Below are positions 2,161 through 25,437 of a stretch of DNA of 29,590 nucleotides, in pieces. The translations under genes and the position numbers were made by a program. The stretch comes from a virus. The DNA lies in the IMG/VR virus record IMGVR_UViG_3300021185_000427, positions 1 to 29,590 of that record, one strand, 5' to 3'. Under the pieces are notes generated by a model, which saw nothing but the letters and a program-made list of their open reading frames with translations, did not search any database and was not told the DNA's origin. The number at the start of each line of letters is the position of its first letter. Position 1 is the first letter of the stretch.

Positions 2161-2622
2161 TTAAAAATTACCATCGGCTCTATCTATAGTTTGTATTACT
2201 GGAGTCCCTCTTGACTTCCACATATCAACTACTTGATTTCTATCATCAAACACTAAATCTATTTTACCGAATTCTTTTTCTACAGTATCTGCAGTTTCTG
2301 CCTTGAAAAGAGCATCTTGTATGAAACAGTCATCTGGTCTCATAAAGATAATTGGTTGCTCTATTCCAATAAAGTTTTGAATTTGTTGAGTAGTTATAGG
2401 TCTTTCCCTATTCATTCTTGCTGTAAAGAATACTACTACATCACCAGCATCGTGGTGTTCTTTGGCTTTATCACAGACCCATTGTATTGGTGTATCATGT
2501 ATTGCATTCTCTCTAAACTTTACCCAATCTTTTTGTTGAGTGCCGTCTACGAAATGCCTTCTATGGTTTACATCTACAATGGTTCCGTCTACATCAAATA
2601 CTATAAATTTCTTCTCTTTCAT
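2161..2622 (-). CDS. Polynucleotide 3'-phosphatase-like HAD enzyme (PseT C-terminal domain)
   Basis: The 153-aa protein has HAD motif I FDVDGT (D10, D12), a TAR motif at T67-R69, an Arg at 95, a Lys at 107 and a C-terminal block DDRNQVVDMW (D126, D127). The C-terminal block closely matches what I remember of the phosphatase domain of T4 polynucleotide kinase/phosphatase (IDDRTQVVEMW). Only the phosphatase domain is present; the N-terminal kinase P-loop of PseT is absent. The likely role is to remove 3'-phosphates from nicked nucleic acid, making 3'-OH ends for ligases. It is a single-gene unit with its own promoter, whose -10 box is only six bases from the ATG. Confidence 0.8.
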   Translation of the reverse strand: MKEKKFIVFDVDGTIVDVNHRRHFVDGTQQKDWVKFRENAIHDTPIQWVCDKAKEHHDAGDVVVFFTARMNRERPITTQQIQNFIGIEQPIIFMRPDDCFIQDALFKAETADTVEKEFGKIDLVFDDRNQVVDMWKSRGTPVIQTIDRADGNF

Positions 2623-11991: not shown

Positions 11992-12750
11992 TTACTTCTC
12001 CTTAGTACTTAATCTTTTAATTGCCTTAACATAGTTAGGCATTCCATGGTCTACAACTCCGTCAAAGAATTTAAATCTTTTCCATGAGTTAAAGATACCA
12101 TAGAACATATCACCCCAAGTTGGTTTAAGTTGCTTATCACCATTTCTATTAAAGTAAATCATTTGACCATGGTGTCTAAATCCTAGCCATGCTGGTGGGA
12201 TTCTACATACTATATCATTATTATTCATAAATCTATAGTGATTACATTTTATATTTTTAATAAATCTCTTACCTCCAACTCTTGGTGAGCCGAATGTGAA
12301 AAGTTCATGTGGTTGATAGCGGGTAGCACTAATTGTAGCCATAGCAGCACCTAATGAATGACCAGTATAATATACATCTTTTCTTACCTTTAGTTGGTCA
12401 TTATGCTCTAGTTCTTTTACGATTTCCATCCATAAATCATCTACTTCTTGTTGGAATCCACCATGTACTTTACCACCTGCCATTGCAGAATTCTTAAATA
12501 CTTTTAAGTCTGCCATAACATCATTCAGTTTACTTGGTTCAGTTCCTCTAAATGCAAACCATAAATCATTTCTATCTTTAGCAATAAGTACTTCTGCACC
12601 ATCCTTAGATATTAATTTAACCCATGCAAAGCCTAATTTCTTTGCTGCTGTTATAGCAGGTTTTTCGTTCATATATGCAATTGCGGATAACTTAGCGGCT
12701 ATTACTGCCCTATCCCATTTACTCCCTTCTTTCATTCTAGTCGTTGCCAT
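11992..12750 (-). CDS. Class 3 lipase-like hydrolase (252 aa)
   Basis: A typical alpha/beta hydrolase of the Lipase_3 group: FAFRGT oxyanion region, then YTGHSLGAAMA with nucleophile S132, FGSPRVGG, NNNDIVCRIPP (D179) and VVDHGMPNY (H235), giving a full Ser-Asp-His triad. There is no signal peptide. The substrate is probably a lipid or ester in the host membrane. The ATG at 12750 has GGAG seven bases upstream and overlaps the end of the upstream lipoprotein gene; in-frame ATGs up to 12795 lie inside that gene. Its position directly after a spanin pair suggests a function in lysis. Confidence 0.85.
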   Translation of the reverse strand: MATTRMKEGSKWDRAVIAAKLSAIAYMNEKPAITAAKKLGFAWVKLISKDGAEVLIAKDRNDLWFAFRGTEPSKLNDVMADLKVFKNSAMAGGKVHGGFQQEVDDLWMEIVKELEHNDQLKVRKDVYYTGHSLGAAMATISATRYQPHELFTFGSPRVGGKRFIKNIKCNHYRFMNNNDIVCRIPPAWLGFRHHGQMIYFNRNGDKQLKPTWGDMFYGIFNSWKRFKFFDGVVDHGMPNYVKAIKRLSTKEK

Positions 12751-13237
12751 TTTCATTCTCCACTTTAATTTCAACTGCTCCAGCGTCTTCATCATTTATC
12801 GTTACATTCCTATAGTAAACTATCACCTCGCCGAGCTGATTAATATATCTTTTAATTTCCTGAGTATTATAAGACATAAGCTCATAATCATCAACCGTCA
12901 TGGCAACAAAAACAATATCACCACCATGTTTCTTTTTAATATCATCTATAAACCTATCGAGATATGTATACCCTTCAGGATATAAATCTTCTCTACCTAA
13001 CTTACAGTCGGCCTTTTTGGTTTCTGGATTCTTTAAACAGTTTTCAATGATAACAGTATCTGATACTACATACCATTTAGGTTCTTTTAAATCTATTGCT
13101 CTAGGCATTACTGGCTGAACAATATCTATCTTAACAGGTTTTGTAATTATTTCAACTTCCCTTGGGGCTTGTTGAAGTAGTGAACAACCACTAATCGTTA
13201 AGAGTGCTAATACGCTGACTATCTGCTTCAATCGCAT
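12737..13237 (-). CDS. Outer-membrane spanin-like lipoprotein (o-spanin, Rz1-like)
   Basis: The signal peptide MRLKQIVSVLALL ends in a lipobox TISGC (C18), so the mature protein should be lipid-anchored. The C-terminal part has VFVAMTVDDYELMSYN and EIKRYINQLGEVIVYYR, similar to o-spanin-like proteins of many phages (from memory). It is longer (166 aa) than the small Rz1 of lambda. It begins inside the end of the i-spanin-like gene (47-base overlap), a known spanin arrangement. Together they would join inner and outer membranes in the last step of lysis of a Gram-negative host. Confidence 0.75.
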   Translation of the reverse strand: MRLKQIVSVLALLTISGCSLLQQAPREVEIITKPVKIDIVQPVMPRAIDLKEPKWYVVSDTVIIENCLKNPETKKADCKLGREDLYPEGYTYLDRFIDDIKKKHGGDIVFVAMTVDDYELMSYNTQEIKRYINQLGEVIVYYRNVTINDEDAGAVEIKVENENGND

Positions 13238-13600: not shown

Positions 13601-13846
13601 TTACTTAGGTGTTATAGACTGTAAGTGAAGCTTCTGTGCCTTTAATTCTTTTTTGGCCTCATTAGCTTTACGTCTAGCTAGCATTCTTTCTACAAACTTT
13701 CTACCTTCTTTAGTACGACCATCGTACACTTTCTTTTTATGTTTCTTAACTTGTGCGGGAGTTAGTGCATCGGATGGCATAGAAACTCCGCCACCTGCAA
13801 CTGAATTGGCTGCTGCATCTTCCCAAATATCTTTAAATGATTTCAT
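13601..13846 (-). CDS. Small basic protein with leader-like N-terminus (81 aa)
   Basis: It begins MKSFKDIWEDAAANS, then a Gly/Ser-rich stretch, followed by a strongly basic C-terminal part (KKHKKKVYDGRTKEGRKF). The first ten residues resemble the leader shared by several proteins of this block, here ending IWE|D, which fits the proposed protease site only partly. The basic mature part would suit a DNA-associated head protein. It overlaps the upstream gene by four bases (ATGA). No named family recognised. Confidence 0.7.
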   Translation of the reverse strand: MKSFKDIWEDAAANSVAGGGVSMPSDALTPAQVKKHKKKVYDGRTKEGRKFVERMLARRKANEAKKELKAQKLHLQSITPK

Positions 13847-15655: not shown

Positions 15656-15955
15656 CTATGTTATGAAAAGCATTCCTGTAATCCCTGTGGCTGCTGCCGC
15701 TATGATTATCCAGAATAATTTATTAATTATCGTTACTGTTGATGCATTGTCTCTTACCAATGTATCTAATTTATCTACTCTATTTATAAGAGATAGAATT
15801 TGTTCACCTTGTTGTTTACCGAATTCGGTCAACGTAATGATTTTTTCTTCAGCCCGAGCTAGGGCTATAATAGCTTCTGACATCTGGTCAATCTTAGTTT
15901 CGATTCTATCCAGACGTGCGGCCTGTTCTGCTCTTTGTTCAGCTGCTGTTGCCAT
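15656..15955 (-). CDS. Coiled-coil protein with C-terminal membrane helix (99 aa), XhlA-like
   Basis: A long amphipathic helix (EQRAEQAARLDRIETKIDQM onward) is followed by a hydrophobic C-terminal segment (LFWIIIAAAATGITGMLF). This tail-anchored layout is like XhlA haemolysin-type phage proteins that associate with holins. It could be a lysis accessory, but it lies 2 kb from the spanin genes and the similarity is in architecture only. It overlaps the upstream gene by 17 bases. Confidence 0.68.
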   Translation of the reverse strand: MATAAEQRAEQAARLDRIETKIDQMSEAIIALARAEEKIITLTEFGKQQGEQILSLINRVDKLDTLVRDNASTVTIINKLFWIIIAAAATGITGMLFIT

Positions 15956-16220
15956 GTTTATAAACCCTACATTTAAGGGGTGTTGCCCCTTTGATTAATC
16001 TATGGTACTCTTCTTTCTTAATATCAAATACCATTCCTTTTTTAAGTAGCCAAGGTAGACATTTTTGTAACTGAAATTGCCAACCTTCACCTTCTAATAT
16101 TTCTATTTCTCTATCTTCCATATCTCGGTGCCAAACAAATTCTCTATCTTCTATAGATGGGTCAAAGGTTCTAACTTCACCATCTTCCCAATAAGGTTTA
16201 CCAAAAGTAATTTCCACCAC
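15939..16220 (-). CDS. Small cupin-like protein (93 aa), GTG start
   Basis: FVWHRDMEDREIEILEGEGW followed by WLLKKGMVFDIKKEEYHRLI fits a small beta-barrel of the cupin type with a possible metal site (His and Asp/Glu in the first motif, His in the second). I recall such proteins in cyanophages and related phages. The start is GTG at 16220 (a second GTG follows), with AGGA upstream; it overlaps the preceding gene by 23 bases. Function unknown. Confidence 0.68.
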   Translation of the reverse strand: MVEITFGKPYWEDGEVRTFDPSIEDREFVWHRDMEDREIEILEGEGWQFQLQKCLPWLLKKGMVFDIKKEEYHRLIKGATPLKCRVYKHGNSS

Positions 16221-16587
16221 CTGAGAGTCCTAAGCTTTTAGCATAACGCGGTAATCGACATGCCCAATAACCAGATGACATTTTATCTGTCTTAGTATCA
16301 CAGTTATGTCGGGCTGCAAAGGAAGCAGCGGCTCCCTTATCGTTAATCTTACTAGTGAGGCCGCCTTTAGCATCACCGAATTCTATTTTCTTTACGTTTC
16401 CTGTTTTAGGGTTCTTAACGTAAACAACATATTTCTTCTTACCACTAGACCTTTTAGGTGAGTTAAGTTCTACATCTCTACCCTGATAGTCTGCTTCAGA
16501 CAATTCAATCATTGGTTGCTCTAGAGGTACTTGTTGACCTTCATAGATACCGAATCTTTCTTCTATATGTTCTAAAAAACTATGCAT
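16198..16587 (-). CDS. Conserved phage protein with C-terminal GYWxCRLPRYAKxLGL motif (129 aa)
   Basis: The N-terminus MHSFLEHIEERFGIYEG holds an IYE|G site at residue 16, similar to the proposed packaging leaders. A basic, Ser/Lys-rich middle (KRSSGKKKYVVYVKNPKTG) leads to a conserved C-terminal domain with RHNCDTKTDKMSSGYWACRL and PRYAKSLGLSGGGNYFW. I know this C-terminal pattern from many phage and marine viral proteins of unknown function. Cys and His residues could bind a metal. The ATG overlaps the stop of the upstream gene (TAATG). Confidence 0.72.
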   Translation of the reverse strand: MHSFLEHIEERFGIYEGQQVPLEQPMIELSEADYQGRDVELNSPKRSSGKKKYVVYVKNPKTGNVKKIEFGDAKGGLTSKINDKGAAASFAARHNCDTKTDKMSSGYWACRLPRYAKSLGLSGGGNYFW

Positions 16588-17033
16588 TAAAATATACTCT
16601 TTAATGTTCTTACTACTTTACTTAATATCATCTTAACAGCAGTATAGTATGCAAATCCATGACCCCATACTATATGAAATGTATGGTTCTTTTCTATTTC
16701 TGATTTTGGTCCGAACTTCTTAGTCCAGTTATCTACATATTCACCCTTATATCTTAATACAGCATGTGATACTTTCCACTTACTTGGACCAACACAACAT
16801 ATACCTGCTTGATGTGTAATTAGCATCCACCACATTTTAATATGGCTTTCACCACATAATCTATAAAGAATAGATAGTGCGTAGTCCTCACAATCACCAA
16901 CTAACTTGCCTTCTGCATTTTCGGAATATATAATTTTCCATGCATCTGCCATACCGTACTGTTCTTTATCATATCTGTATTTCCATTTACTATTGAATGA
17001 ATCTACAATTGCATCTTTATTTAATTTTGTCAT
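16587..17033 (-). CDS. Transglutaminase-like cysteine protease/peptidase (148 aa)
   Basis: The motif GDCEDYALSILYRL gives a catalytic-type Cys (C48), followed by VSHAVLRYKG with His (H90) and YVDN with Asp (D101). This Cys-His-Asp order fits the bacterial transglutaminase-like cysteine proteinase group. The C-terminus is basic with a short hydrophobic stretch. I chose the ATG at 17033 because it overlaps the stop of the upstream kinase-like gene as ATGA. It may cut a protein or peptidoglycan cross-link; the substrate is unknown. Confidence 0.72.
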   Translation of the reverse strand: MTKLNKDAIVDSFNSKWKYRYDKEQYGMADAWKIIYSENAEGKLVGDCEDYALSILYRLCGESHIKMWWMLITHQAGICCVGPSKWKVSHAVLRYKGEYVDNWTKKFGPKSEIEKNHTFHIVWGHGFAYYTAVKMILSKVVRTLKSIF

Positions 17034-17698
17034 TTTTTTTGTCCCTTTATCCATTGTTGTGCTAATCTATTCTCGGGTGGTTTCTTAGCCCAAGTCATAA
17101 TATCTTTATACGCCTCTAATGTAGACCTTTCAATATCTGCATCATCTGAATTATCAACAATGGTCATTCTGTTTCTAAACAATCCTTGAAATTTACCTAT
17201 ATTCTTTTGTACAGCATCCCACATTTTCTTAACTGCAGGTGTTGGTAAAACTCTATCTCTACTCTTATTTCTTTTTTGTGCAGTCTCTAAATCTGTATTA
17301 ACAAATATCATGTGTACTGCATAACCTAAATCTCTTAACTGATTCACACTCTTTTGAATCTTACCATAATCCTTGCCAGTTCCATCTATAACTACACCCA
17401 ATCTTCCTTTTAAAGCTAACTCTAATTGTAGGCCAGTAATTTTCTTAGCCTTATCTCTTAATGCTTGACCTTGAGCAGAAAATATATCTTCAGGCTCCAT
17501 TGTTAGTCCAGCCTTTTTAAGAGCATTTTCATAATTAATATCAGAGTTAATAAGTTTAAACCCTAAGCTTAATAAAGAAGTCTTACCAACTACAAATGAT
17601 TTACCTGAACCAGGGCCACCTGCAAGGAATACTGCTTTAAATATTGCTGGGTCGTTAACCCCTTCATCTATATTAAAGTGTTCTTTAAACTTTATCAT
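17030..17698 (-). CDS. Zeta-toxin-like P-loop kinase (222 aa) with leader-like N-terminus
   Basis: The leader MIKFKEHFNIDEG has an IDE|G site after residue 12. The enzyme domain follows with FLAGGPGSGKS (Walker A, K33), LINSD and DGTGKDYGKI, then HMIFVNTDLETAQKRN and an Arg-rich lid (RDRVLPTP). This layout is that of zeta-toxin or polynucleotide/nucleotide kinases. The real substrate is unknown: it might phosphorylate a nucleotide sugar (zeta), a 5'-OH end or a small nucleotide. If the leader is cut, the mature kinase would be delivered inside the head. Confidence 0.8.
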   Translation of the reverse strand: MIKFKEHFNIDEGVNDPAIFKAVFLAGGPGSGKSFVVGKTSLLSLGFKLINSDINYENALKKAGLTMEPEDIFSAQGQALRDKAKKITGLQLELALKGRLGVVIDGTGKDYGKIQKSVNQLRDLGYAVHMIFVNTDLETAQKRNKSRDRVLPTPAVKKMWDAVQKNIGKFQGLFRNRMTIVDNSDDADIERSTLEAYKDIMTWAKKPPENRLAQQWIKGQKK

Positions 17699-18042
17699 TT
17701 CTTTAAATCGTACCTAAATGATTTATTCTTACCTTGGCCAGACTTAGTAATACCATACCCAGCAATTTTAGCAAGTTGTTGTAATACTGGCCAATTCTTT
17801 TCTGACTTCTTACTTCTATTATTCTTTAACATATCATTTTCAATTTTATTAAATAAAGTTTTAATCATATCACTATCATGCATGACTAATGGTGCTTCAT
17901 CAATATCTTCACTTCTTGACCTTTCAAAATCTTGTTTGGTCGGAGCTCCTTTTGACCCAGGTTTACGCATAGTCTTTCCACTCTTTCTTTTCTTGTGGAT
18001 ATTATCCCAGAGACTTTCGTTAAACTCTTTAAAGGTATTCAT
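17695..18042 (-). CDS. Small basic protein with MNTFKEFNES leader-like start (115 aa)
   Basis: After MNTFKEFNESLWDNIHKKR the protein is Lys/Arg- and Ser-rich (KSGKTMRKPGSKGAPTKQDF). I remember this start from marine T4-like phages. The C-terminal half (WPVLQQLAKIAGYGITKSG) may be a small folded domain. The leader shares the F-K-E-F signature of its neighbours but has no clear I/L-x-E|A/G site; an IDE|A occurs later at EDIDEAPLV. It overlaps the next gene by ATGA. Function unknown. Confidence 0.7.
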   Translation of the reverse strand: MNTFKEFNESLWDNIHKKRKSGKTMRKPGSKGAPTKQDFERSRSEDIDEAPLVMHDSDMIKTLFNKIENDMLKNNRSKKSEKNWPVLQQLAKIAGYGITKSGQGKNKSFRYDLKK

Positions 18043-18281
18043 TATTTCATACCCATAACTTTTTGTGCAATGTGTACTAAAGTTTCAATGTTTGAATTTT
18101 CCATCTTCTTCTTATTTGCATCACTTACTTTATCATAAACTGATATAATCATAGATGCAGTAAACATATCTAACATAACTCCACCAACTTTCTTAGCTCC
18201 CTTACTCTTAACTATAGTCTGAATTACTGGGATTAAGTTTTTGGCTTCATCTACTTGTCTAAACTCTTTAAATTTTTTCAT
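18042..18281 (-). CDS. Small protein with MKKFKEFRQVDEA leader-like start (79 aa)
   Basis: The leader ends in VDE|A after residue 12, exactly the position seen in three other proteins of the block. The rest is a helical, partly hydrophobic protein (KVGGVMLDMFTASMIISVYD) ending in a Lys-rich and amphipathic stretch. No family recognised. Start and stop codons overlap with both neighbours. Confidence 0.7.
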   Translation of the reverse strand: MKKFKEFRQVDEAKNLIPVIQTIVKSKGAKKVGGVMLDMFTASMIISVYDKVSDANKKKMENSNIETLVHIAQKVMGMK

Positions 18282-19555: not shown

Positions 19556-20824
19556 TTAATTTCCCCTTACTTTTGCGGCTAAGTCTTTATCTGCTTTACC
19601 CCATGTTCCTGATGATTTGGTTACAAAAGAATTGACTCTTGCTAACCCCCATTGTGTTGGATTCGTTCCTGGTCTATGGCCTGTTCTCCATGCGGCAAAT
19701 CCTCTATCAAATACTTTCTTTAATATAGCTAATGGCATTCCTGACTTGTCTGCTTTCTTCTTTAAAGCATCATCAGCCTTACCTTCATTAACTACATAAT
19801 CTTCAAAACTTAAATGTTTGGCCATTTCACCATACATATCTTTATATTTCTTAGTGTGTTTGGATGGCTTTGTTTTTGCTCTTGCATCTCCAGGAGCTGG
19901 TTTATATGCCGCTGGATTATTATCATCTTTTTCAGCACCCTTCTTAAAGTGGGCTTTTCTTTTAGCTGAAGTTGACTTTGCAAGACCAGAGTAATAGTTC
20001 TTACTCTCTACTTGTTCTACTTGTTCTAACCAAACTTTTTTATTACCATTAGAGAAAGATACTGTAAGATAATTTGCACCTTTGGTGATAATCTTACCCT
20101 CTTCTTTATTCTCTTTTAATCTTACTATATCACCAATATTAAATAAGTTTCCTAAGATAAACTTTTCTCTTGTTTCTGATACTGTAGGTAGTTCTATATG
20201 AGACCTAAAGCTTTTCTCTTCTTTAAGACCCATCCCCTTTCTTACTGCATTAAATAACTCAGCTGAACCAGTGTAACCACTTGGAAGACCACTAGAAAAT
20301 AATTGTAAATCTCCTTCTGCAGCCGCTGCTCTCATTTTAGAGGCGGACATCCCTGTCACTCCTTCTGCATCCGGGTCTCTTTGCCCTGCAGAGATAACTT
20401 TAATACTTCCTTCAAATTGATAGAAGCCATGTCTTGCCTGAACACCATTATATTTGTTTAGTAAAATTTCAAATTCTTTTACTCTATCTGAACCTGCAAC
20501 CATTGCCATTTTAGTAAACCCTTGGTCATATAACTTAGTTGCAATTTCAATTATAGTACGCACGTCTCCGTCTGCCATGATACTTCTGGCATGTCTAGGA
20601 AACATTTTTCTTAGGAACTTAATCTTATCTTTGAATTTAAGAGGATTCTTTTTAGGGTCTTGGGATTGTGATGCATATATTCTATACTGACCACCACGTG
20701 ATACTTTTTTGAGTGTCTCAAATAGTTTTTCGTGGCCAGTTGTCGGTGGATTAAATCTACCAAACACGACCGTTATTTCTTTAGATGCTTCGACTATGTA
20801 GTCACTGAAATTTTTGACTTTCAT
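19556..20824 (-). CDS. Cytidylyltransferase-like protein with C-terminal GHRPG domain (422 aa)
   Basis: The leader MKVKNFSDYIVEA gives an IVE|A site after residue 12. An HxGH-family nucleotidyltransferase domain follows: FGRFNPPTTGHEKL (21-34), VAGSDRV (109-115) and GMSASKMR (158-165). A KOW/SH3-like stretch lies at about 228-272. A second leader-like sequence, SFEDYVVNEG at 339-348, comes just before a C-terminal domain with GFAAWRTGHRPGTNPTQWG and ARVNSFVTKSSGTWGKADKD (possibly DUF5824, from memory). It may transfer a nucleotide to a small molecule such as NMN or a phospho-alcohol. Two domains separated by a possible cleavage site suggest two packaged products. Confidence 0.8.
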   Translation of the reverse strand: MKVKNFSDYIVEASKEITVVFGRFNPPTTGHEKLFETLKKVSRGGQYRIYASQSQDPKKNPLKFKDKIKFLRKMFPRHARSIMADGDVRTIIEIATKLYDQGFTKMAMVAGSDRVKEFEILLNKYNGVQARHGFYQFEGSIKVISAGQRDPDAEGVTGMSASKMRAAAAEGDLQLFSSGLPSGYTGSAELFNAVRKGMGLKEEKSFRSHIELPTVSETREKFILGNLFNIGDIVRLKENKEEGKIITKGANYLTVSFSNGNKKVWLEQVEQVESKNYYSGLAKSTSAKRKAHFKKGAEKDDNNPAAYKPAPGDARAKTKPSKHTKKYKDMYGEMAKHLSFEDYVVNEGKADDALKKKADKSGMPLAILKKVFDRGFAAWRTGHRPGTNPTQWGLARVNSFVTKSSGTWGKADKDLAAKVRGN

Positions 20825-20842: not shown

Positions 20843-22087
20843 TTAGTTAGGACTATCCCAACCTTTTATTATATCTTTACTGAAGTTATTATAGGAGAAT
20901 TCTAACCTATCAACTAACTTTACAGCGCCACCTTCCATTCTATCTATAGCAACAAAACCTTCTTGGTTGGTTACTTTAAATCCGGATTTAGTTTTAACAA
21001 ATGTATTAATTTTGTTAAGACTATTAAGTTTATTTATAAGAATTAATTTACTATTTACAACAAAATTCTGTAAATCGAAGATTAATTTTAGGTTCTTTAT
21101 ATTACCTTTACTAAAGAATTTAAGTAATGCATCTCGTTTATCTACTTGAGTCTGTTTACCTTTGTCTGAACTTCTTTTATCAATCTCTTTTTGATATCTA
21201 TTATTAATCCACATTACTAAACCAGTTGCATGTTTCTTAGTATCAGTAATTCTTTGACCTTCTCTTACCTTTGAATTGTTATATACATTAAGTAACATAT
21301 TTAATTCAGCATTAGACTCTAACTCTTTTAGTGTAGTAGAAGCAATCTTTTTAAATACTTTACCAGCCTCTGAAAGATTTTTATTTAGTTCTTCTGTTTC
21401 TGATTTAGTAAGAGTTGCCGTACCAGAAAGGTCGGGTAATGTAGCATCTTGCATCCATATATCCTTTGACTTCTTTAACTTAGGTACTATCTCTTTACCA
21501 AACTCGGCTCTCATTGTCTCAAACGTTGCTCCACTATACGTTGTATGCCAAACAATTCCAATCTTAGCTGCTCCAATCTCCTTAGCGAGAGCACTGTCAG
21601 TAGGTACTGCGTAAGCGATAGTGTTAGGATGAAACACAATATGACTAATTCCATTTATCTTCTCCTTTTTAAGGTCTGACTTATCGAACATAAAGTCACC
21701 CTGTATAACTCCTTTGATTCCTATATTTTGTAAAGTATCGAATGCCATTATAAGTTTCTTAGTTAGGTCACCCGATGTGTCTGCTTTAATATCTTCATGT
21801 GATTTATATATTTTTGGATTGGCATTGAAGATACCTTTTTTAGCAACAAAGAATTCACCCGTCTCTGGGTGTTCTCCAGCAAATACGGCGGGGGCTCCGT
21901 CCCATTTCACGGTAACATCCACTGGTGCCTTGGTGTTACCTGATAGCATATCCCGTAGACTTCTAAGCGCTAGGATAGCTTGGCGAGCCCCCTTGACTCC
22001 TCCATCGATAATTAAATCTTCAATGTGGGTCATGTGAGTATTCTTTGCTGCCTCGTGTAGAGGTGTATAATTACTTAATCTTCTCAT
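20843..22087 (-). CDS. Divergent ligase-like nucleotidyltransferase (414 aa), DUF6267-like
   Basis: The leader MRRLSNYTPLHEA has an LHE|A site after residue 12. Next comes VTVKWDGAPAVFAG: K61-W-D-G64 is a ligase motif I (KxDG), with FVAKKGIF (80-87), GVIQGDFMF (126-134) as possible motif III, and near the C-terminus EGFV (376-379) and VKLVDR (K390) as possible motifs IV and V. The order is that of ATP-dependent DNA or RNA ligases and capping enzymes. I recall the protein as DUF6267 in marine phages. Activity is untested. It overlaps the upstream gene by four bases. Confidence 0.72.
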   Translation of the reverse strand: MRRLSNYTPLHEAAKNTHMTHIEDLIIDGGVKGARQAILALRSLRDMLSGNTKAPVDVTVKWDGAPAVFAGEHPETGEFFVAKKGIFNANPKIYKSHEDIKADTSGDLTKKLIMAFDTLQNIGIKGVIQGDFMFDKSDLKKEKINGISHIVFHPNTIAYAVPTDSALAKEIGAAKIGIVWHTTYSGATFETMRAEFGKEIVPKLKKSKDIWMQDATLPDLSGTATLTKSETEELNKNLSEAGKVFKKIASTTLKELESNAELNMLLNVYNNSKVREGQRITDTKKHATGLVMWINNRYQKEIDKRSSDKGKQTQVDKRDALLKFFSKGNIKNLKLIFDLQNFVVNSKLILINKLNSLNKINTFVKTKSGFKVTNQEGFVAIDRMEGGAVKLVDRLEFSYNNFSKDIIKGWDSPN

Positions 22088-23544
22088 TTATATAACCTCT
22101 TAAATTCATCTGTCATCATTGCGTTGAAATTAGGTGCACTTGAAAAGTTACCTTTGTATCTTAATATAATATTACATACTGCAACTGGGCCAATAAATAA
22201 AGTAAACTTTAAATTAGCCGCTCCTGAGCCTGGGTCGAATGCTTGTTTTGCACCCGGAGTATATTTCATTATTGGTTTACCTTGAGAAAATAAATCATCT
22301 AGTTTGCTTGATACTGAATCAATGTCTTTATACTCTCCGCCTTCTACTACAACGCCTTTCTTAGGGCCGTAGTCACCAACTCCCGTAACTAATGCAAAAT
22401 CAAAATTAACTTTCTTTAGTTCTTTTAAGTCTGATTTAAATATTAACTGAACTAGAATATTTGAAAATAAGTCTGACTTAGATAATATCGTTTCGCCCAT
22501 CATTTTAAATAATGTTCTTTTACCCTTTAATACTCTATTAATAAGGTCATTAGGAATTCTATTAACATACTTTTTCCAATTCTTAGTAGTTACTGGATTC
22601 TTATTAAGGTCATCAAATAGTTCATCAGACATCATATCAGGATATCTTTTTCTTAGTCTCTGAGCTAATTTAATTACATGAACATAAAACCTACCAGCAT
22701 CTTCTTCAACTGCTTCTTTAAGTTTTTTAAGTTTTGGCTCATTAAGTAATTTTGTGAATGACTTATTAATAAGTGTTGGGTCTTCCTCTGTGACTCTTTT
22801 CTTTTTCTTTAAAGATACCCCTAGGAATTTATTACCTTTCTTAATAATAAAGTCAGATGAATTAAAATCTTGCATTCCATATTTTGACATTTGGAATTGT
22901 TTTACATCATTATCCCATGCTTGACCAGTAAGATAAACCATGTCAGCATTACCATATCCTGCATCGATAATAACATTAGCGGCCGATACTGCTTGTGCTA
23001 GATTAGAATAACTACCAACTAGTGAATCTACTTGGCTTTGTTTATATCCTTTTACCTTCTTTAATTGTGCTCTTACTAATTCAATCATTTTATCCATTTC
23101 ATCTGAATTAGTAATTGTATGTTTCTTAGGGAATAGACATAAGGCAGCAGTCATAAGTTCATGTGGATCATCACCTAAAGAACTACGACCACCTTTGGGT
23201 CTAGCATTTACATATATGGCTTTTTCCATATCTTTATGTTTAAAGTAATAATCTTTTTCTGCTCTTGCACCTGATATCTTAATGAGTTCTAAGTTAGGTT
23301 CTTTTTCAATAATTTCTCTTGCAAGTTGTGAGAAGTTTCTACGGGACTTATCGTCCATTAATTGTGAAATTCCAATCTTTTTAGAATTAGATTTACCTGC
23401 TCTTAGGTCTAATTCCACTTCAGTGTCTATAGATGAAATTGCATCATCTATTGCTTGTACTAACTTTACAGCGTTGAGATTATCATCAGTAGTTGATAGA
23501 GCACTAAGCTCTTCTGTCATAAAACTGTTTTTAAATCTTATCAT
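22084..23544 (-). CDS. Large PD-(D/E)XK-like protein (486 aa), candidate packaged nuclease
   Basis: It begins MIRFKNSFMTEE, a leader-like start. A possible nuclease core runs from PHEL (E129) through GNADMVYLTGQAW to SSDFIIKK...GVSLKKK, with D231 and S244-x-K246. This is a D-x12-SxK variant of the PD-(D/E)XK pattern, as seen in some restriction-type nucleases. The rest is Lys-rich and unassigned. It is the first gene of the 12-kb block and lies behind promoter P6 and a possible late promoter. I know similar proteins from marine T4-like phages as hypothetical. The nuclease call is inference from motifs. Confidence 0.7.
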   Translation of the reverse strand: MIRFKNSFMTEELSALSTTDDNLNAVKLVQAIDDAISSIDTEVELDLRAGKSNSKKIGISQLMDDKSRRNFSQLAREIIEKEPNLELIKISGARAEKDYYFKHKDMEKAIYVNARPKGGRSSLGDDPHELMTAALCLFPKKHTITNSDEMDKMIELVRAQLKKVKGYKQSQVDSLVGSYSNLAQAVSAANVIIDAGYGNADMVYLTGQAWDNDVKQFQMSKYGMQDFNSSDFIIKKGNKFLGVSLKKKKRVTEEDPTLINKSFTKLLNEPKLKKLKEAVEEDAGRFYVHVIKLAQRLRKRYPDMMSDELFDDLNKNPVTTKNWKKYVNRIPNDLINRVLKGKRTLFKMMGETILSKSDLFSNILVQLIFKSDLKELKKVNFDFALVTGVGDYGPKKGVVVEGGEYKDIDSVSSKLDDLFSQGKPIMKYTPGAKQAFDPGSGAANLKFTLFIGPVAVCNIILRYKGNFSSAPNFNAMMTDEFKRLYK

Positions 23545-23945: not shown

Positions 23946-24172
23946 TACACTAGTTCCAAGAAGTCATCAAACATGCCAGGGTTATCCGAGACAACTCTTT
24001 TGATATTCTTCTTAATTGTGGCAACATCATCAGTAAATCCTGCCTGTTCTGCAGTTTCAATTCTTGCCTTTACTGTATCATAATCAAACTTGAAAGGGTC
24101 GTCATATACTTTTGGCTTCCACACGATACTTGTGTCTTTTTCAATACCTTTATATTCTATTCTGCTTTTCAT
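23945..24172 (-). CDS. Small hypothetical protein downstream of DNA ligase (75 aa)
   Basis: It begins MKSRIEYKGIEKDTSIVWKP and has a helical C-terminal half (ARIETAEQAGFTDDVATIKK). It overlaps the ligase stop by four bases, so it is co-translated with the ligase. No domain or catalytic motif recognised; it might be a ligase partner, but only position suggests it. Confidence 0.68.
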   Translation of the reverse strand: MKSRIEYKGIEKDTSIVWKPKVYDDPFKFDYDTVKARIETAEQAGFTDDVATIKKNIKRVVSDNPGMFDDFLELV

Positions 24173-25437
24173 AGTTTTTCTCCTGGGACGAACCCTCTAA
24201 ATGTTTTAAATCTTGGGAATCTTAATGAATAAGTCCCATCTTGGTTTTGTGAAATAGAGTCTGCTCTAACTTCCACCAACTGGCCTAATACAGCATCTTG
24301 GTTTTTCCAAATACTATCTCTAATCTTATCAGTTAAACCACCACCGACATTGACTTTAATATCAACACCTTCATCGTGGCCTTCACAAACTAGAGCACCT
24401 GTTGTTCCTTCGAATTTACCCTGTCCTTCTTCTATACTTTCTACCGATAGGGTTACTTCTATAAATGGCTTGATTTTAAACCAAGCATTACTTCTTTTAC
24501 ATTCGTATAAACCATCTACTGGTTTAACCATAATTCCTTCATAACCATTTTCTATGGCCTCTTTATTAATCTGCATGAATACATCATATTCTTGTTCTAG
24601 GTTAATAAATTCATAATCAACTAATCTAATACAATCTGGTAATAGACCAAAGAGTGAATCTTCCATATTAAGTTTTCTATCGTAACAGCCGTCTATGGAA
24701 ACTCCTGTATTAAATTCTTCTAAACTAATCATATCAAAGAGAGCTAGATAAGCATCTTCTGTTTGAGCTCCTTCTTTTCTATGTACTTGTTTCATAAGAC
24801 TTGTAAAGTTATCACTCATAATCTCACCATCGAATACCATTCCCTCAAATTCTGGTTGACTTAGGGCTTCTTCAATATGAGGGAAGTTGGAATATACTTT
24901 ACCATTCCTAGAATAGATAGTGGCCTTTCCGTTATTTACTATAGTAATAGCTCTTACCCCATCATACTTGTACTCGATAAGGCAATCACCTTTCATGTGT
25001 TTATTATTTTCACCATTACTCGCCAACATACAATGGAATCTTGGAATCTCAAAGCCAATATCTTTACCCATCTTGTTAATAGTCTTTTCTGATACACCAC
25101 ATTTTAAATCTTTAAGAAGAATCCTACGATACCAATAGTTCCACTCATCCATGGTGGCTTTATTCATTGTCTCTTCTATTGAATCTTTAGCGGCGTTACC
25201 TGTTAAACATCTATGTTGTAATGATAGTGCTAGTTTCCAAAAATCACTTGTCTCAAGCCCTTCACCATCCTTCTTAGAAATAGGTATCAATTTAACGCCG
25301 AATGTATCGAAGGGATTGAGAGCAAGTTTTACTCCGTCTTGGAATTCTTTATTGTCAATATGTTGGGAAACTACATCTTCCTTAAATAACCTTGAGTTAT
25401 CTGTTTCTAGTTTTTGTATTACTTCCCAAGGTTTCAT
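24169..25437 (-). CDS. 30: ATP-dependent DNA ligase (T4 gp30-like)
   Basis: The 422-aa protein has motif I EYKYDG with the adenylated Lys at K157, then an SRNG motif (YSRNG), VFDGEI (motif III), YEGIMVK (motif IV) and WFKIK (motif V). An N-terminal helical domain precedes the catalytic core and an OB-like domain follows. The length is a little below that of T4 gp30. It joins Okazaki fragments and nicks in phage DNA. The start overlaps the stop of the upstream small gene by four bases. Confidence 0.95.
   Translation of the reverse strand: MKPWEVIQKLETDNSRLFKEDVVSQHIDNKEFQDGVKLALNPFDTFGVKLIPISKKDGEGLETSDFWKLALSLQHRCLTGNAAKDSIEETMNKATMDEWNYWYRRILLKDLKCGVSEKTINKMGKDIGFEIPRFHCMLASNGENNKHMKGDCLIEYKYDGVRAITIVNNGKATIYSRNGKVYSNFPHIEEALSQPEFEGMVFDGEIMSDNFTSLMKQVHRKEGAQTEDAYLALFDMISLEEFNTGVSIDGCYDRKLNMEDSLFGLLPDCIRLVDYEFINLEQEYDVFMQINKEAIENGYEGIMVKPVDGLYECKRSNAWFKIKPFIEVTLSVESIEEGQGKFEGTTGALVCEGHDEGVDIKVNVGGGLTDKIRDSIWKNQDAVLGQLVEVRADSISQNQDGTYSLRFPRFKTFRGFVPGEKL

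What the first reader, a model, noticed from the sequence alone, without database searches (positions are those of the whole stretch)
20843..22087. Second, unusual ligase-like enzyme: KWDG motif in a DUF6267-like protein
Seen: K61-W-D-G64, FVAKKGIF, GVIQGDFMF, EGFV at 376-379 and VKLVDR with K390, in the order of ligase motifs I to V. The phage already has a clear gp30-type ligase at 24169-25437, so this one probably does another task such as RNA joining, end adenylation or capping. Its leader suggests head packaging.
Basis: partly seen in the sequence, partly recalled or inferred. Interest (0 to 1): 0.62.

Follow-up and report, generated by a model that had tools for sequence, protein, structure and literature searches.

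The report
Hidden ligase-type enzyme, probably head-packaged
A marine phage gene of "unknown function" (family DUF6267) very probably encodes a distant RNA-ligase-type enzyme with all its catalytic residues intact; in this phage it carries a short tag like the one T4 uses to load proteins into its head, and in related ocean cyanophages, which have no recognisable ligase, it is the only ligase-like gene found.

Summary
Observation confirmed. The 414-aa minus-strand ORF at 20843-22087 is Pfam DUF6267 (E 3e-101). K61-D63-G64, K84, D131, H181, E376-G377 and K390 lie in the order of ligase motifs I, Ia, III, IIIa, IV and V, and are 99.7-100% conserved in about 370 homologues. Sequence profiles do not find the ligase relationship. 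A predicted structure of a short homologue (pLDDT 92) does: 49 of its 50 best PDB matches are RNA or DNA ligases, led by Naegleria RNA ligase, although no single match is significant alone (best E 0.012, TM about 0.35). No OB domain follows motif V, which argues against a canonical DNA ligase or capping enzyme and for an RNA-ligase-like layout. The first 12 residues are disordered and resemble T4's capsid-targeting sequence: 165 of 166 relatives of the window's kind have such a leader, 0 of 159 cyanophage-type relatives. Neighbouring enzymes have it too, including a polynucleotide-kinase-like protein. The neighbouring cytidylyltransferase family was detected in cyanophage virions by others. 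Ten complete Kyanoviridae genomes with DUF6267 lack any Pfam-recognisable DNA or RNA ligase. Best reading: a new family of ligase-type nucleotidyltransferase, most likely sealing RNA ends and, here, delivered from the head. Substrate and activity are untested.

The parts
20843..22087 (-). DUF6267 protein, 414 aa; predicted ligase-type covalent nucleotidyltransferase
   Evidence: PF19782 E 3.3e-101; AlphaFold2 pLDDT 93.3, pTM 0.89
22052..22087 (-). N-terminal leader MRRLSNYTPLHE (residues 1-12), capsid-targeting-like, with LHE|A as possible prohead protease site
   Evidence: pLDDT below 50 only at residues 1-12; PWM score 16.1 against a null 99.9% of 7.8
22016..22036 (-). invariant HxxHxED motif (residues 18-24), role unknown
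   Evidence: H18 and H21 100%, E23 99.2%, D24 99.5% of 368 sequences
21896..21907 (-). motif I, K61-W-D-G64; K61 the predicted nucleotide-accepting lysine
   Evidence: K61, D63, G64 100% of 371
21827..21850 (-). motif Ia region F80VAKKGIF87 with K84 (compare K119 in FKSKGS of T4 Rnl1)
   Evidence: K84 99.7% of 372
21686..21712 (-). motif III, G126VIQGDFMF134; Q129 and D131 invariant (ligases have Glu)
21536..21547 (-). motif IIIa, H181-T-T-Y184
   Evidence: H181 100%, T182 and Y184 99.7%; RLIG1 also has a motif IIIa His (PMC11494293)
21023..21406 (-). helical insert, residues 228-355, between motifs IIIa and IV
   Evidence: helices H228-247 to H327-355; shortened in cyanophage homologues
20951..20962 (-). 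motif IV, E376-G-F-V379
   Evidence: E376 and G377 100% of 370
20906..20920 (-). motif V, K390-L-V-D-R394 (KxVxR in place of KxK)
   Evidence: K390 100%, V392 99.5%, R394 99.2%
22084..23544 (-). upstream conserved protein (phrog_3060, unknown) with capsid-targeting-like leader, overlapping the ligase-like gene by 4 bases
   Evidence: leader score 9.5; homologue directly upstream in 37 held loci
19556..20824 (-). downstream HIGH-type cytidylyltransferase plus DUF5824; leader MKVKNFSDYIVEAS; its family (T4-GC190) was detected in S-SM1 virions
   Evidence: PMC3037559
17030..17698 (-). P-loop kinase similar to the T4 PseT kinase domain, with capsid-targeting-like leader
   Evidence: AAA_33 8e-11, Zeta_toxin 9e-10; phrog_505 polynucleotide kinase 9e-7; BLASTP to T4 PseT E 3e-5; leader score 8.0
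2161..2622 (-). stand-alone PNKP-type HAD phosphatase; possible 3'-end healing partner, far from the cluster and without leader
   Evidence: PF25109 3e-16; Pnkp1 4xrp 1.2e-6; T4 PseT E 5e-7
24169..25437 (-). gp30-type ATP-dependent DNA ligase with OB domain, no leader
   Evidence: PF01068, PF14743

Best explanation
DUF6267 is a previously unrecognised family of ligase-type (covalent lysine) nucleotidyltransferases with an RNA-ligase-like layout. Most likely K61 takes AMP from a nucleotide cofactor, with D63, K84, D131, H181, E376 and K390 holding nucleotide and metal, and passes it to a 5'-phosphate end that is then joined to a 3'-OH. RNA, for example cleaved tRNA, is the most likely substrate. 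In this phage a 12-residue capsid-targeting-like leader would load the enzyme into the prohead and be clipped after LHE by the prohead protease, so that the enzyme enters the cell with the DNA, together with neighbours that carry the same kind of leader, including a polynucleotide-kinase-like protein. Shown by computation: family, residue conservation, a confident model of ligase type, the leader pattern and its distribution. Inferred: AMP as the adduct, end joining, RNA as substrate, packaging and injection of this protein.
For: Catalytic set 99.7-100% conserved over about 370 divergent homologues. Confident models (pLDDT 93.3 and 92.4). Fold search with the short homologue: 49 of the top 50 PDB hits are RNA or DNA ligases, best 5cou Naegleria RNA ligase E 0.012, prob 0.93. 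Ligases or capping enzymes are also 7 of the 50 weak hits of the window protein. E-to-K spacing of motifs IV to V is 14 here and 13 in T4 Rnl1 (E227, K240) and RLIG1 (E240, K253). The chain ends 24 residues after K390 with one helix: no OB domain, as in RNA ligases. Leader: 165 of 166 relatives of the window's kind; a PWM from 71 of these leaders ranks T4 IPII and IPIII 2nd and 3rd of 360 T4 ORFs. IPIII positions 4 and 7 target, 8 and 10 govern processing (PMC9026906). The adjacent cytidylyltransferase family was found in S-SM1 virions (PMC3037559). PseT-like kinase and PNKP phosphatase in the window; kinase next to DUF6267 and cytidylyltransferase in cultured HTVC008M; one kinase-DUF6267 fused ORF (L316).
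Against: No PDB fold match reaches E 0.001, TM is only 0.2-0.37, and superpositions are poor. Sequence profiles find no ligase, and hhalign was no better than decoys. Motif III has Asp and motif V lacks the second Lys. The kinase is missing from C48C1, DLP6 and all cyanophages tested, and the PNKP phosphatase from all ten Kyanoviridae tested, so a fixed repair kit is not general. Cyanophage DUF6267 has no leader. No mass-spectrometry evidence for DUF6267 itself was found.
Confidence: 0.6

Rival explanations
1. DUF6267 is a DNA-joining enzyme: the cryptic DNA ligase of T4-like cyanophages and pelagiphages, kept as a second ligase where gp30 is also present.
For: Ten complete Kyanoviridae genomes with DUF6267 have no PF01068 or PF01653 ligase and no Rnl1/Rnl2 match. 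The absence of g30 from cyanomyoviruses was noted in 2010, with undetected distant homologues named as one explanation; S-PM2_138, the DUF6267 gene, stands in the same paper's signature list as Unknown (PMC2984593). The gene lies in the replication cluster gp43-uvsX-gp41-MazG.
Against: No OB domain after motif V, which canonical DNA ligases have; best fold match is an RNA ligase; the window phage, its near kin, DLP6, XaC1 and XG4 carry both DUF6267 and a gp30-type ligase; the host ligase can substitute in T4 (PMC2984593).
Confidence: 0.2
2. It uses the same fold for another transfer: RNA capping, 5'-end adenylation only, or nucleotidylation of a protein or small molecule, perhaps together with the adjacent HIGH-type cytidylyltransferase.
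For: Altered motifs III (Asp) and V (KxVxR) and an invariant HxxHxED of unknown role; tight linkage or fusion with the cytidylyltransferase; human mRNA guanylyltransferase among the weak matches of the window model.
Against: Capping enzymes carry an OB domain after motif V, absent here; no PF01331 match; RNA ligases fill the best matches of the short homologue.
Confidence: 0.15
3. A structural head protein that keeps a dead ligase fold.
For: Capsid-targeting-like leader in many homologues.
Against: Catalytic residues 99.7-100% conserved across divergent phages, with and without leader.
Confidence: 0.04
4. Chance resemblance of short motifs; the fold is unrelated to ligases.
For: No individually significant sequence or fold match.
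Against: Order, spacing and conservation of six motifs and 49 of the 50 best fold matches from one superfamily.
Confidence: 0.05

Closest known systems
Naegleria gruberi RNA ligase (5cou, 5cot; Rnl5 type)
   Same: Best PDB fold matches; K-x-D-G nucleophile motif and RNA-ligase core
   Different: Low TM (0.33-0.37), 11-12% identity; by my own knowledge it has an N-terminal OB domain, absent here; no helical insert between IIIa and IV
T4 RNA ligase 1 (RnlA, PF09511)
   Same: By eye KEDG...FKSKGS...NFEFV...IEGYV...FKIK matches K61WDG...FVAKKGIF...IQGDF...QEGFV...VKLVDR in order
   Different: No PF09511 match; Asp for Glu in motif III; KxVxR for KxK; T4 RnlA has no such leader
T4 RNA ligase 2 (RnlB, PF09414)
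   Same: Fold matches 2hvr, 1s68 (E about 0.1)
   Different: No PF09414 match; no separate C-terminal helical domain
RLIG1 (C12orf29, Yasminevirus RLIG1)
   Same: Lys/Asp of motif I, His in motif IIIa, Glu of IV, Lys of V; nucleotidyltransferase domain without an added RNA-binding domain (PMC11494293)
   Different: Motif Ia Arg there, Lys here; motif III Glu there, Asp here; large helical insert here
ATP-dependent DNA ligase (gp30) and mRNA capping enzymes
   Same: Same superfamily of core
   Different: OB domain after motif V missing; no PF01068 or PF01331 match
T4 internal head proteins IPII and IPIII (capsid-targeting sequence)
   Same: Leader pattern MKxF/YxxY/FI/LxEA with hydrophobic 4, 7, 8 and Glu at 10
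   Different: IPs are small proteins; here the cargo is a 414-aa enzyme; packaging not shown; window leader two residues longer

Membership tests
DUF6267 (PF19782) | profile match over most of the model | tested here: met
   E 3.3e-101, model positions 1-373 of 376
Covalent nucleotidyltransferase (ligase/capping) superfamily | motif I K-x-D-G | tested here: met
   K61, D63, G64 100% of 371
Covalent nucleotidyltransferase (ligase/capping) superfamily | acidic motif III, motif IIIa, E-G of motif IV, K of motif V, in order | tested here: met
   D131, H181, E376-G377, K390 100%; Asp in place of Glu in III, no second Lys in V
Covalent nucleotidyltransferase (ligase/capping) superfamily | nucleotidyltransferase fold | tested here: inconclusive
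   49 of the top 50 PDB matches of the homologue model are ligases, but best E 0.012 and TM 0.2-0.37; window model no match below E 0.001. I read this as very probably met, but not formally significant.
Covalent nucleotidyltransferase (ligase/capping) superfamily | lysyl-NMP intermediate | not testable with these tools
   needs purified protein
T4 Rnl1 family (PF09511) | profile match | tested here: not met
   no hit in Pfam scan up to E 1
T4 Rnl2 family (PF09414) | profile match | tested here: not met
   no hit; hhalign to T4 RnlB uninformative
ATP-dependent DNA ligase | OB domain after motif V; PF01068 match | tested here: not met
   chain ends 24 residues after K390, one helix; no PF01068 hit
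mRNA capping enzyme | OB domain after motif V; PF01331 match | tested here: not met
T4-type head-packaged internal proteins | N-terminal capsid-targeting-like leader ending in a prohead protease site | tested here: met
   leader score 16.1 against a null 99.9% of 7.8; 165 of 166 relatives
T4-type head-packaged internal proteins | protein present and clipped in the virion | not testable with these tools
   only the neighbouring cytidylyltransferase family has virion mass-spectrometry support; the supplementary table was not readable here

The most novel reading that the evidence does not exclude
DUF6267 is the long-unidentified ligase of T4-like cyanophages and pelagiphages, and in the phages of heterotrophic bacteria it has been turned into a head-packaged, co-injected end-repair enzyme that acts, with a packaged kinase, before any phage gene is expressed.
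Probability: 0.25. Interest if true: 0.82.

Novelty: new variant of a known kind. Interest (0 to 1): 0.62.

Why it matters
The family is in 461 phage records, mostly cyanophages, and is annotated as unknown in Pfam, in PHROGs and in the records read here. If it is a ligase, it gives a function to a signature gene of marine cyanomyoviruses, bears on the question, left open in 2010, of whether these phages have an unrecognised ligase (PMC2984593), and, with the leader, would be the first case I know of in which a polynucleotide-sealing enzyme is packed in a phage head for delivery (my knowledge; the paper searches here found none).

Tried and rejected
phmmer and hmmsearch of PDB sequences with the protein, A1 and A2: no ligase; the ankyrin/DARPin hits are a chance match of TPLHEAA in the leader region (Ank_3 E 0.15), the others coiled coils. 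hhalign of DUF6267 against T4 Rnl1, Rnl2 and gp30 profiles: DUF6267-Rnl1 E 0.032, shuffled decoys down to 0.075, known pair Rnl1-Rnl2 only 0.008, so no power. Foldseek with the full window model: long helical insert, no significant hit; the short homologue was therefore modelled. Foldseek against viral models: only DUF6267 relatives significant. Plasmids: no match. Bacterial and archaeal genome contigs: 36 hits, many in metagenome bins and looking like phage contigs; this was not checked contig by contig. A kinase-ligase fusion as proof of pathway: only one case (L316), possibly a read-through; not relied on. Leaders listed for P-SSM4-type homologues are start-codon artefacts (true start MPNKH) and were not counted.

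Full report
OBSERVATION. It belongs to Pfam DUF6267 (E 3.3e-101) and PHROG 455 (unknown function). A gp30-type ligase with OB domain is separate, at 24169-25437. The window is an IMG/VR virus fragment of 29590 bases.

CONSERVATION. From phage records, viral contigs and genome contigs I collected 364 homologous ORFs. Over these plus cultured phages (372 sequences), K61, D63, G64, P66, Q129, D131, Y159, H181, E376, G377 and K390 are 100% conserved where aligned, and K84 99.7%; H18 and H21 are also 100%. W62 varies. Thus the motifs are under strict constraint in proteins down to about 24-26% identity, with and without leader.

FOLD. AlphaFold2 with 92 homologues gave a confident model (pLDDT 93.3, pTM 0.89); only residues 1-12 are disordered; a helical block at 228-355 interrupts the mixed alpha/beta core between motifs IIIa and IV. 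Foldseek found nothing below E 0.001 in the PDB; seven of the 50 listed weak hits are ligases or a capping enzyme. I then modelled a short homologue, L366 (296 aa, 30% identical to the window protein), where the insert is reduced (pLDDT 92.4, pTM 0.87). Of its 50 best PDB matches 49 are RNA or DNA ligases; the best is Naegleria gruberi RNA ligase (E 0.012, prob 0.93), with T4 Rnl2 and archaeal RNA ligases following. TM-scores are low (0.2-0.37) and no single hit is significant, so the fold call rests on the enrichment plus the motif match, not on any one alignment.

LAYOUT. The chain ends 24 residues after K390, with one short helix. DNA ligases and capping enzymes have an OB domain there (established knowledge); RNA ligases of the Rnl1, Rnl2 and RLIG1 types do not. 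RLIG1 also has a motif IIIa His next to the motif III acid (PMC11494293), as H181 here. This favours an RNA-ligase-like enzyme. Deviations: Asp for Glu in motif III, KxVxR for KxK in motif V, an invariant HxxHxED at the N terminus.

LEADER. In relatives of the window's kind the reading frame starts with M-x-x-F/L-x-x-Y/F-I/L-x-E-A/Q/S directly before the conserved KNTHMTHIED. A PWM from 71 such leaders, containing no T4 sequence, ranks T4 IPII and IPIII second and third of 360 T4 ORFs. In T4 IPIII positions 4 and 7 matter for targeting and 8 and 10 for processing (PMC9026906), the same positions conserved here. The window leader MRRLSNYTPLHEA is two residues longer and was not in the training set; it scores 16.1 against a shuffled 99.9% level of 7.8. 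165 of 166 homologues of this kind have the leader, 0 of 159 cyanophage-type ones; the tree forces at least five changes of the trait. Other window genes with such leaders: 22084-23544, 16198-16587, 18042-18281, 17030-17698 and, at the level of the null, 17695-18042; 19556-20824 has MKVKNFSDYIVEAS, which my scoring does not fit. The cytidylyltransferase family T4-GC190, whose gene overlaps the DUF6267 gene (T4-GC71) in S-SM1, was detected in S-SM1 virions (PMC3037559). Whether DUF6267 was detected is in a supplement I could not read.

CONTEXT. The gene lies downstream of gp41 and MazG in cyanophages, with a cytidylyltransferase after it. The window adds a P-loop kinase similar to the T4 PseT kinase and a PNKP-type phosphatase. 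In cultured HTVC008M the kinase lies between DUF6267 and the cytidylyltransferase. But the kinase is missing from C48C1, DLP6 and the cyanophages, so RNA end repair as a pathway is an inference, stronger for this phage than for the family.

LIGASE COMPLEMENT. Ten complete Kyanoviridae genomes with DUF6267 (C48C1, S-SZBM1, S-PM2, ACG-2014d, ACG-2014f, P-SSM4, P-SSM5, S-CAM4, Melnitz-3, HTVC008M) have no PF01068, PF01653, PF09414 or PF09511 match; T4 as positive control has gp30, Rnl1 and Rnl2; DLP6, XaC1 and XG4 have other ligases as well. The lack of g30 in cyanomyoviruses was noted in 2010, with undetected distant homologues as one of two explanations, and S-PM2_138 (DUF6267) stands in that paper's signature list as Unknown (PMC2984593). 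Near kin of the window do have gp30, so simple replacement does not explain the family.

VERDICT. A new family of ligase-type nucleotidyltransferase (fold about 0.9, end joining about 0.65, RNA as substrate about 0.5, head packaging in this phage about 0.7; all my estimates). I found no paper that names it; subscription papers and preprints were not searched.

Noticed in passing
L434:15966-16130 (T4 gene 61.1): The leader PWM trained on marine phages ranks T4 gp61.1 (MKTFKEFIKED..., 54 aa) first of 360 T4 ORFs, above IPII and IPIII: a possible further T4 head-packaged protein.
   Followed up: no
window 16198-16587, 17695-18042, 18042-18281, 13601-13846: Small unknown genes with the same capsid-targeting-like leader (scores 9.3, 7.8, 8.6, 5.4), suggesting a cassette of head-packaged proteins.
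   Followed up: partly
L362:1828-4635, L363:288-3101: 936-938-aa proteins joining DUF6267, a cytidylyltransferase and a C-terminal domain with GDVKIGDYQVEVKS, which resembles a PD-(D/E)xK nuclease motif by eye.
   Followed up: no
L316:3936-6182: One ORF holding the P-loop kinase and DUF6267 (749 aa); a fusion or a lost stop codon.
   Followed up: partly
L273:420-1949, L276:4728-6242: DUF6267 preceded in the same ORF by a domain resembling window ORF 15939-16220, cupin-like by eye.
   Followed up: no
L083:5004-6783 (S-PM2, AJ630128): DUF6267 is split between two frames in this record (S-PM2p138 and p139), while an intact 591-aa S-PM2 protein (A0A0M6VVW4) that joins it to the cytidylyltransferase is in BFVD.
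   Followed up: partly
window 22084-23544: Conserved upstream protein of unknown function (phrog_3060), leader-bearing, overlapping the ligase-like gene by 4 bases.
   Followed up: partly
window 11992-12795: Class 3 lipase (PF01764 E 1.6e-20) in a phage.
   Followed up: no
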